Shown piece by piece: positions 37,381-39,025 of a stretch of DNA of 64,000 nt; positions within the stretch are counted from its first letter, which is position 1; each line of letters starts with the position of its first letter. The notes beneath the pieces were generated by a model. That model had not been told where the DNA came from, did not search any database, and worked only from the letters and a program-made list of their open reading frames with translations. Position numbers and translations under genes: made by a program. Origin of the DNA: Elusimicrobiales bacterium (GTDB lineage Bacteria; Elusimicrobiota; Elusimicrobia; Elusimicrobiales; UBA9959); the NCBI GenBank assembly GCA_028713125.1, contig JAQTOU010000001.1:142273-206272 (forward strand), written 5' to 3'.

Positions 37381-37400
37381 GCCAAGCGGCCAAATAAAGA

Positions 37401-37425
37401 ACCGGGAGCCCTCTCCCGGTTTTTT
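37401..37425 (+). terminator. Intrinsic terminator of the NfeD-stomatin operon
   Basis: ACCGGGAG/CTCCCGGT hairpin (37401-37420) with a CCCT loop, then TTTTT. Confidence 0.93.
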
Positions 37426-37429
37426 ATTT

Positions 37430-37885
37430 ATTGGACATAAAAGAAGACCCTTAGGGTTGCGACGAAAAACACGTTCGGCCACACCGCGCATTCGATAGGC
37501 GGCTGGGCGGCCTACCGTGCGGGCCGGAACGCAAAACGCGTTCGGGCACACCGTGCCCTCACTCCGTGTTCGCCCGCCGGGCTATGCAACCGGCGGGCTC
37601 TCCGAGGGTTTTGCTAACCCGGCCCGCTCGGTCTCCGCCCAGATTGTTCGCCTTAACGCAACCTCGCCGACTATTCAAGTGAGCGGAGGGGCGGCAAGGG
37701 TATGGGTTCGGAGCGACCTCTCGGAGGCCCGAGCTTGCATAAGCGCGAGGGCCGAGAGAGGAGGCGCGGCCACGGTGTGGCCGACGCCGTGAGCGACGGG
37801 CCCATACCCTTGCCGCCCCGACTTCGCATCCTGTTAGATACAGTTGAATTGTGTCGCTTCGCTCCACCCGCGGCTCTTCTATTAA
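37430..37885. other. 456-bp non-coding stretch packed with inverted repeats
   Basis: No convincing gene: short frames exist on both strands, but they overlap each other and have no ribosome sites or family motifs. The stretch has a 9-bp hairpin (37572-37580 with 37590-37598) and a pair of diverged direct repeats (CGTTCGGCCACACCG near 37472 and CGTTCGGGCACACCG near 37539). The largest structure is the inverted repeat listed at 37688-37819. Base composition is as GC-rich as the genes. It may be a structured RNA, a non-autonomous repeat element or gene remnants. Confidence 0.55.
37688..37819. repeat. Long inverted repeat with nested hairpins
   Basis: Perfect 19-bp arms (GGGGCGGCAAGGGTATGGG at 37688-37706 and its complement at 37801-37819) enclose 94 bases. 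Inside are a second stem (CCTCTCGG at 37717-37724 with CCGAGAG near 37752) and a third (CGGCCAC/GTGGCCG, 37767-37783). The fold is a multi-branched cruciform or RNA. There is no T-tract, so it is not a simple terminator. Confidence 0.75.
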
Positions 37886-39025
37886 TTAGTATTTCCAGGC
37901 GGAGAGGCGGCGGAGGGCTTCGTCCAGGGTGGCGTCTTTTTTGGCGAAGCAGAAGCGGACGATGCCGCGCTGCGGGTTCTCGGAGTAGAAGGCGCTGACC
38001 GGGATGGCGGCTACGCGCGCTTCTTTGACCATGCGCGCGCAGAAGCCGGCGTCGTCCCCGGCGGGACCGAGGTCCACGCTCAGGAAATAGGTGGCCTGGC
38101 TCGGAAGCACTTTGTAGCCCGCGCCCGTAAGGCCTTTGGCGAAGCGGTCATGCGAGGCGCGCAGGGAATCTTTCAGGCCTTCGTAATAAGTGTCGCCGAG
38201 CCCAAGGCCGTAGGCGACGGCCGACTGCAGGTTGGGCGGAGTGCAGAAAGTGAGATATTGGTGAGCCTTAGAAAGGACTTTCATAAGCTCCGGCGCGGCG
38301 CAGACCAGGCCGACTTTCCAGCCGGTGAGGGAAAAGATCTTGCCGGCGGAGCCGATCTTTACACAGCGGTCCCGCAGGCCGGGAAGAGCCATCAGCGGGA
38401 TATGCCGCGGTCCGTCGAAGACAGTGTGCTCCCAGACCTCGTCGCAAATCGCTATAGCGTTGTATTTAAGGACGTAGCGCCCGAGCAGCTCCAGGTCCTC
38501 GCGCGGGAAGGCCGTGCCTGCAGGGTTGAGCGGATCGTTAAAAAGCACGGCGCGGGTCTTCGGCCCGAAAGCGCGCTTAAGGTCCTCTTCGTTAAGCCGC
38601 CAGCCCGGGGAGCGGAGGGTTACGAAGCGCGGTATCCCGCCGGCCCTGCGGACTAGCGGAAGGTAGGCGTCGTACATCGGCTGGAACAGGACCACCTCGT
38701 CCCCCGGCTCCAGGATAGCCATAAGCGCGCCGGCGAGCGCTTCAGTGGCGCCCGACGTCACCATCACTTCCTTCTCCCAATCCAGGTCCAGTCCCTGGAA
38801 GCGTTCGTAGTGCACGGCCGCCGCCCGGCGCAGCTCGGACAGCCCCATCATCGGCGCGTACTGGTTCCAGCCGCCCAGAACGTTTTCCGCCGCCTTGCGC
38901 CTGACCTCCTCCGGGCCAGGGTCGTCGGGAAAGCCCTGCCCCAGGTTCACGGCGTCATTGGCCGCGGCCAGCCGCGACATGCTTTCGAAAATAGTGGTGG
39001 CTGAGTCCGAAAATACGCTGTTCAT
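37886..39025 (-). CDS. PLP-dependent class I/II aminotransferase
   Basis: A 379-residue fold-type I aminotransferase. Motifs are the N-terminal VNLGQGFPDDPGP, WNQYAPMMGLSELRRAAAVHY, VTSGATEALAGALMAILEPGDEVVLF, FNDPLNPAGTAFPREDL with the PLP-ring Asn, CDEVWEHTVFDG with the Asp to N1, and the Schiff-base Lys in GSAGKIFSLTGWKVG. The LGQGFPD start and the Lys loop match the KAT/YbdL group, which transaminates methionine, aromatic amino acids or kynurenine with 2-oxo acids. The substrate is not decidable here. It has its own extended -10 promoter and a leader of about 120 bases with two hairpins. Confidence 0.93.
   Translation of the reverse strand: MNSVFSDSATTIFESMSRLAAANDAVNLGQGFPDDPGPEEVRRKAAENVLGGWNQYAPMMGLSELRRAAAVHYERFQGLDLDWEKEVMVTSGATEALAGALMAILEPGDEVVLFQPMYDAYLPLVRRAGGIPRFVTLRSPGWRLNEEDLKRAFGPKTRAVLFNDPLNPAGTAFPREDLELLGRYVLKYNAIAICDEVWEHTVFDGPRHIPLMALPGLRDRCVKIGSAGKIFSLTGWKVGLVCAAPELMKVLSKAHQYLTFCTPPNLQSAVAYGLGLGDTYYEGLKDSLRASHDRFAKGLTGAGYKVLPSQATYFLSVDLGPAGDDAGFCARMVKEARVAAIPVSAFYSENPQRGIVRFCFAKKDATLDEALRRLSAWKY

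What the first reader, a model, noticed from the sequence alone, without database searches (positions are those of the whole stretch)
37430..37885. Non-coding region with a 19-bp-arm branched inverted repeat
The region between a terminator and the 3' end of the aminotransferase gene has no gene but holds a perfect 19-bp inverted repeat with nested stems, another 9-bp hairpin and diverged direct repeats. It could be a structured RNA, a non-autonomous mobile element or a hot spot of gene loss.
Basis: seen in the sequence. Interest (0 to 1): 0.57.

Follow-up and report, generated by a model that had tools for sequence, protein, structure and literature searches.

The report
Shuffling DNA hairpins between bacterial genes
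The stretch is one copy of a family of long hairpin-forming DNA repeats, about a hundred per genome, whose inner parts are swapped and flipped between species while the outer stem stays in place, pointing to an undescribed kind of mobile or recombining DNA in a group of uncultured bacteria.

Summary
In detail: the 19-bp inverted repeat is exact and folds far beyond chance (z -10). It is half of a dimeric repeat. Unit A (37510-37636, +) and unit B (37689-37818, -) are inverted copies of one ~127-nt structured unit, 52 bp apart. The genome holds 94 such units in 73 places: 52 solos and 21 pairs, every pair in the same inverted arrangement. All 32 genus genomes carry it, and 13 of 27 others in the family; elsewhere in the phylum (apparently Elusimicrobiota) one weak match. 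33 of 39 base pairs show changes on both sides; G.U pairs are rarer than in tRNAs, suggesting a DNA hairpin rather than an RNA. No unit lies in a gene; units sit downstream of genes without strand preference. At 25 sites shared with a relative (24 occupied), 9 of 30 units are >=96% identical, 4 are inverted, most others have a replaced core, often inside the same locus-specific arms. Best reading: a non-autonomous palindromic mobile element family (REP/MITE-like in behaviour) with exchange of hairpin tips. The enzyme is unknown; a resident RAYT is not required. No cellular function is shown.

The parts
37462..37486 (+). truncated remnant of a third unit core, part of the left outer end; source of the 'diverged direct repeat'
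   Evidence: matches cores of other copies at 92-100% over 25 nt
37503..37510 (+). X end, left arm CTGGGCGG of unit A's extended stem (partner CCGCCCAG 37635-37642)
   Evidence: read; recurs next to unit A-type copies
37510..37636 (+). unit A, 127-nt structured unit (core type called alpha in this report)
   Evidence: covariance model R1, 149.6 bits, E 2.9e-27
37514..37527 (+). outer stem of unit A, left arm (right arm 37619-37632)
   Evidence: inverted repeat I4, 93%; compensatory changes across copies
37544..37558 (+). first inner hairpin GGGCAC-ACC-GTGCCC of unit A
   Evidence: read; helix 4
   Evidence: read; helix 6
37637..37688 (.). 52-bp spacer between the two units
   Evidence: spacers of 52-55 bp in 16 of 21 pairs of the genome
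37689..37818 (-). unit B, second unit in inverted orientation, different core type
   Evidence: covariance model R1, 60.4 bits, E 6.3e-10
37688..37706 (+). left arm of the 19-bp inverted repeat (outer stem of unit B)
37801..37819 (+). right arm of the 19-bp inverted repeat
37820..37830 (+). Y end GACTTCGCATC, interrupted
   Evidence: 31 copies of the Y-end motif in the genome (up to 1 mismatch) against 0 for the backwards control
37831..37868 (.). small nested hairpin insert that splits the Y end (CATC | CGCGG)
   Evidence: the same insert splits the Y end in L147 and L168, and a related one lies inside a unit in L125

Best explanation
The region is one dimeric copy of a lineage-specific family of non-autonomous, intergenic, hairpin-forming mobile DNA elements. 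SHOWN: the unit is repeated about a hundred times, is confined to intergenic space, pairs in one fixed geometry, folds with copy-specific complementary arms, and its cores are replaced, inverted or nested at sites shared between species. INFERRED: a trans-acting enzyme that recognises the extruded or single-stranded DNA hairpin (perhaps strand-selectively, as hinted by the recurring C.T mismatch in the outer stem) moves units into spacers downstream of genes, and recombination or template switching between hairpins exchanges the part of a hairpin distal to a given stem height, so both arms change together and pairing is kept. Selection removes insertions in genes and promoters.
For: 94 units in own genome in 73 clusters, all 21 pairs '+-', spacers 52-55 bp in 16 of 21. 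Present in 32 of 32 genus genomes and 13 of 27 other family genomes. 0 of 73 clusters inside a called gene; convergent spacers 19/73 vs 59/522 background (p 0.0013), divergent 6/73 vs 95/522 (p 0.03), 37 of 48 tandem cases nearer the upstream stop. Covariation: 21 of 39 pairs on the unfitted alignment, 33 of 39 on 94 distinct rows of the fitted one; arms pair with their own partner (14.7/18) better than with other copies' (9.8/18), solos n=42. Copy pairs with cores >=95% alike but outer stems <65% alike (161 pairs) still pair 0.91 own vs 0.63 cross. G.U 66 of 3403 standard pairs against 38 of 686 in tRNAs. 25 shared sites with relative G019: unit identities bimodal, 4 inversions, 1 site without element. 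The SPFH site carries a unit in 2 of 17 relatives, another hairpin in 2, none in 12, cut off in 1, read by eye.
Against: No clean target-site duplication was found; the one unoccupied site (L143) keeps half an arm and may be a deletion. No autonomous parent or transposase was found next to the element and none of the 31 Y ends bounds a longer element. 24 of 25 shared sites are occupied in both species, so insertion is slow or old; the relative's stretches were partly chosen because they hold elements, which biases this upward. Nine units are more conserved than their flanks, which pure parasitism does not predict.
Confidence: 0.65

Rival explanations
1. Old, now immobile repeats kept alike by ectopic gene conversion, with arms kept complementary by palindrome correction (template switching during replication); no transposition in recent time.
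For: 24 of 25 compared sites occupied in both species; core types swap among sites and are mosaic; complementary changes with few one-sided intermediates.
Against: The SPFH site is without a unit in 12 of 17 relatives read and L143 lacks it in G019, so gains or losses occur; fixed dimer geometry suggests a replicative unit; copies with near-identical cores have unrelated arms.
Confidence: 0.25
2. A functional cis element at the RNA level: transcribed hairpins that end transcription or protect mRNA 3' ends, as proposed for REP and BIME sequences; spread is secondary.
For: Position just downstream of stop codons and enrichment between convergent genes; 9 of 30 units >=96% identical between species although flanks differ by 4-16%; strong structure conservation. 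A long palindrome would fold from either strand.
Against: G.U pairs are rarer than in tRNAs of the same genomes; no strand preference (17:19); whole units inverted or cores replaced at shared sites; in the window the SPFH gene already has its own terminator-like repeat at 37392-37429; no Rfam family.
Confidence: 0.17
3. REPIN-like element mobilised by a RAYT (Y1 transposase).
For: Inverted doublets of palindromes with a spacer, intergenic, high copy, as in REPINs (PMC3116915, passages); Y1_Tnp was found in 27 of 32 genus genomes.
Against: Y1_Tnp was not found in 7 of 45 carriers and occurs in 11 of 14 non-carriers; its only copy in the own genome is flanked by a different palindrome (by eye); the units are several times larger than REPs.
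Confidence: 0.08

Closest known systems
REP / REPIN / BIME (RAYT-associated palindromes)
   Same: Intergenic, high copy, palindromic, inverted doublets with a regular spacer, mosaic composites.
   Different: Unit ~127 nt with a branched fold against the 20-40 bp stated for REPs (PMC3733652, start of abstract in the search listing); no consistent RAYT association; exchangeable cores inside locus-specific arms.
ERIC / IRU (127 bp, enterobacteria)
   Same: Length 127 bp, intergenic, proposed non-autonomous mobile sequence (PMC2229807, section 5 part 1).
   Different: No dimer geometry or core exchange is described in the part read; unrelated lineage. Sequence relation to ERIC was not tested directly.
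Caulobacter CIR elements
   Same: Two long inverted repeats forming two arms joined by a linker, about 110 bp, intergenic only, mechanism of mobility unclear (PMC2229807).
   Different: Here each arm is a full 127-nt branched unit and most copies are single units; the CIR GANTC motif was not looked for.
MITEs such as Correia/NEMIS and RUP
   Same: Small, non-coding, structured, dispersed, apparently without their own transposase; two copies seen with inverted Y ends at both sides (L121, L160).
   Different: No consistent terminal inverted repeat or target-site duplication; no parent IS found.
Mitochondrial double-hairpin elements of chytrid fungi (recalled; one search found no paper)
   Same: Recalled: mobile double hairpins with compensatory stem changes.
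   Different: Bacterial, longer, intergenic; the comparison rests on memory only.

Membership tests
REP/REPIN (RAYT-mobilised) | inverted doublet of palindromes with regular spacing, in intergenic DNA | tested here: met
   21 of 21 pairs inverted; 16 of 21 spacers 52-55 bp; 0 of 73 clusters in genes; but 52 of 73 are solos
REP/REPIN (RAYT-mobilised) | cognate RAYT in the genome, flanked by the palindrome | tested here: not met
   own Y1_Tnp locus L041 shows no unit; Y1_Tnp not found in 7 of 45 carrier genomes
REP/REPIN (RAYT-mobilised) | conserved tetranucleotide tag (GTAG/CGTC) at one end of the hairpin | tested here: inconclusive
   GGTAG or GGAGACC lies at the ends of pair-type units, but solo units have other ends
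MITE | terminal inverted repeats bounding the element | tested here: inconclusive
   outer ends X and Y differ; Y at both ends seen in L121 and L160; solo units end in copy-specific arms
MITE | target-site duplication / clean empty site | tested here: not met
   no consistent duplication seen by eye in flanks; the L143 unoccupied site is not clean
MITE | parent IS with matching ends | tested here: not met
   31 of 31 Y ends belong to hairpin elements; no recurring mobile gene among 366 flanking proteins; the four recurring families, judged by eye, look like ordinary genes
Known structured RNA family (Rfam) | match to a covariance model | tested here: not met
   none over the element at gathering score; only a 15-bit match at E 0.33, far below its gathering score of 74
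Functional structured RNA | compensatory base changes | tested here: met
   but also expected of a DNA hairpin
Functional structured RNA | transcription of a fixed strand | not testable with these tools
   no expression data; strand relative to genes shows no bias
Integron attC sites | cassette arrays next to an integron integrase | tested here: not met
   copies are dispersed among ordinary genes, no recurring integrase among neighbours

The most novel reading that the evidence does not exclude
A hairpin-tip exchange system: a dedicated structure- or site-specific recombinase (serine recombinases are one lead) swaps and flips cassettes inside conserved, locus-specific DNA hairpins across a whole bacterial lineage, so the outer stem acts as a standing attachment site and the core as the mobile cassette.
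Probability: 0.18. Interest if true: 0.86.

Novelty: new variant of a known kind. Interest (0 to 1): 0.62.

Why it matters
Small palindromic repeats occur in many bacteria, but how they spread and why their stems stay paired is mostly open. Here roughly a hundred copies per genome and dozens of species give direct before-and-after views: the same outer stem with a different or inverted core. That makes rules of hairpin exchange and the DNA-versus-RNA question testable by sequence alone.

Tried and rejected
RAYT as the current mover: the own Y1_Tnp gene is not flanked by the unit and Y1_Tnp is uncorrelated with carriage.

A lead only.

Coding region: the mechanical ORFs over the element were not taken as genes; the codon-based caller found none there.

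Known RNA: Rfam gathering and permissive searches.

Parent transposon: sought as recurring neighbour proteins and as Y ends away from units; none found.

Inverted duplication of random target sequence as the source of the arms: rejected because solo arms share composition, a partial consensus and a recurring C.T mismatch.

Target-site duplication: looked for by eye, none consistent.

Literature: Elusimicrobi* with palindromic/repetitive/intergenic, miniature inverted, serine recombinase, interspersed repeat; nested palindrome exchange; double-hairpin elements. No description of this family was seen in those listings; most subscription papers are not in the library.

Full report
WHAT IS THERE. 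The 19-bp inverted repeat is exact and the 151-nt stretch folds with z -10 against shuffles. A DNA search of the window's own genome (3.48 Mb, 39 contigs) with 37430-37885 returned 50 matches, many covering only one of two parts. Alignment of 17 longer copies showed that the part with the 19-bp repeat, read on the minus strand, has the same plan as the part before it: a long outer stem, conserved bases near GGAACGCAAAAC, a hairpin around CACACCGTG, a second hairpin, then GTTTTGCTAACC and the other half of the stem (clearest in L007, L009 and L012).

ONE STRUCTURED UNIT. From 25 units (A1) a consensus fold with 39 pairs was derived; 21 pairs show changes on both sides, against 1 to 5 when partners are slid by 1-3 columns. 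A covariance model (R1) finds both units in the window (37510-37636 +, 149.6 bits; 37689-37818 -, 60.4 bits). In the own genome it finds 94 units. They group into 73 places: 52 solo units and 21 pairs; every pair is inverted in the same sense, with spacers of 52-55 bp in 16 of 21 and 5, 28, 36, 38 and 70 bp in the rest. Some solos have a diverged partner that the model missed (for example L101 and L125), so the number of solos is an upper bound. Counted on 94 distinct rows (A3, fitted to the model), 33 of 39 pairs have changes on both sides and 95.4% of cells pair.

COPY-SPECIFIC ARMS. Printing all copies shows that solo units share cores but have different outer stems, each complementary to itself. 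In 42 solos the arms pair with their own partner at 14.7 of 18 positions and with other copies' arms at 9.8; 32 of 42 do best with their own (71 of 94 units passed the arm motif filter, 69 of them with full-length arms: 42 solo and 27 pair units). For 161 copy pairs with cores at least 95% alike but stems under 65% alike, own pairing is 0.91 and cross pairing 0.63. A C.T mismatch recurs in the solo stems; C.T is the commonest mismatch type (54 cells).

DNA OR RNA. Among standard pairs of the units 66 of 3403 are G.U (40 of them in one column), 0.8% without that column. In 31 tRNA predictions from the same sequences it is 38 of 686, 5.5% (some predictions look doubtful and ARAGORN's stems held no mismatch, so this is a rough control). 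Scarce G.U intermediates fit pairing kept at the DNA level. Rfam has no family.

WHERE IT SITS. With a simple codon-usage gene caller trained on the window, 0 of 73 places lie inside a gene. Convergent spacers hold 19 of 73 places against 59 of 522 background gene pairs with a gap of at least 30 bp (p 0.0013); divergent spacers 6 of 73 against 95 of 522 (p 0.03); in tandem spacers 37 of 48 are nearer the upstream stop. Solo units in tandem spacers are 17 sense and 19 antisense. The background pairs come from the window and the G019 stretches. No mobile gene family recurs among 366 flanking proteins.

WHO HAS IT. All 32 genomes of the genus match, and 13 of 27 others of the family (hits per genome were capped at 59 scored candidates). 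Of 294 genomes drawn over the phylum 35 match, 34 of them in the family and one elsewhere in the class at E 3.9e-4, not followed. The rest are titled Elusimicrobia, Elusimicrobiota, Elusimicrobiales or unnamed bacterium. That the window is from Elusimicrobiota is an inference from this. The relative G019 seems to be the record set JAJZPF (isolate SKS1.bin115), since contig C1 and L246's contig are both 52415 bases long.

WHAT HAPPENS AT SHARED SITES. The first look was the SPFH gene: of 17 relatives read downstream of it by eye, 12 show no element, 2 a solo unit, 2 a different long hairpin, and 1 is cut off. Then own loci were matched to 1.136 Mb of G019; 25 of 73 have both flanks there, at 75-96% nucleotide identity. 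One (L143) has no element in G019, but the site is not clean: half an arm remains. In the other 24 sites there are 30 own units. Nine are at least 96% identical (L112 unit 1, L114, L126, L130 unit 2, L139, L140, L144, L169 unit 1, L172). Four are inverted (L113, L115, L138, L146). L137 holds a different element. Most of the rest have a replaced core or tip: in L167 and L145 the same locus-specific arms enclose another core type; in L150, L129 and L130 the outer X or Y ends stay and cores differ; in L136 and L149 the tips differ. Greek core names and the words 'replaced' and 'tip' are my reading of the alignments, not a tool's call. Read in the unit's own direction, the arms of L115 are carried along in the inversion, so the whole hairpin flips, not only its core (inference). 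Stem changes between species are often paired: L167 GTCGCC/GGCGAC to GTTGCC/GGCAAC, L145 and L136 likewise, and several in L112 unit 2; unpaired changes also occur (L139, L126, L172). Small further hairpins are nested in the units, including 37831-37868 in the window, which splits the Y end.

HOW IT MOST LIKELY WORKS. The copy number, intergenic confinement, fixed dimer geometry and presence or absence among relatives are those of a non-autonomous mobile palindrome. Exchange of everything above a given stem height keeps pairing automatically, and would explain why near-identical cores sit in unrelated arms and why one arm pair holds different cores. Whether exchange comes from ordinary gene conversion, from template switching at hairpins, or from a dedicated recombinase is not settled. 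A resident Y1 (RAYT) enzyme is not required by its distribution. Serine recombinases track carriage (36 of 45 against 1 of 14) but so do phylogeny and genome size.

COMPARISON. In REPINs, doublets of REP palindromes are inverted with a spacer and are thought to be the replicative unit, singlets being remnants (PMC3116915, passages). Here singlets outnumber doublets and many are not evidently decayed, and the unit is far longer. CIR elements have two arms and a linker; ERIC is 127 bp (PMC2229807, outline and section 5 part 1). A survey of stem-loop families in 40 genomes exists (PMC2267715, abstract and outline); its family list was not read. I found no description of this family in the searches named under Tried and rejected.

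VERDICT. Observation confirmed and extended; interpretation partly supported; a new variant of a known kind, of real interest because of the tip exchange and inversion inside lasting stems.

Noticed in passing
L041 (own genome C11, around 519591-519818): A Y1 transposase-domain gene is surrounded by several copies of the palindrome CTATTGAGGTTGAGCCTCAATAG or close variants, probably a separate REP-like family; a related copy lies beside an element in L118.
   Followed up: partly
window 37886-39025: The aminotransferase gene between the element and the RND transporter gene was not found at this place in the relatives examined; in several the SPFH gene is followed directly by the RND gene.
   Followed up: partly
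L180 (G030), L393, L134: A further long hairpin core, not matched well by the model, carries the same Y-type outer end, so the family has more core types than modelled.
   Followed up: partly
L043 (G019), L156, and the G019 counterparts of L144 and L145: A small nested hairpin CAAGAAAGTGG...CCACGC is inserted at different tips in different units and species, with its own variable inner stem.
   Followed up: no
family of 59 genomes: Resolvase-domain (PF00239) genes, many with frames over 500 aa, occur in 36 of 45 element carriers and 1 of 14 non-carriers.
   Followed up: partly
genome G294: One genome of another family of the same class has a single weak match to the unit (E 3.9e-4); not examined.
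   Followed up: no
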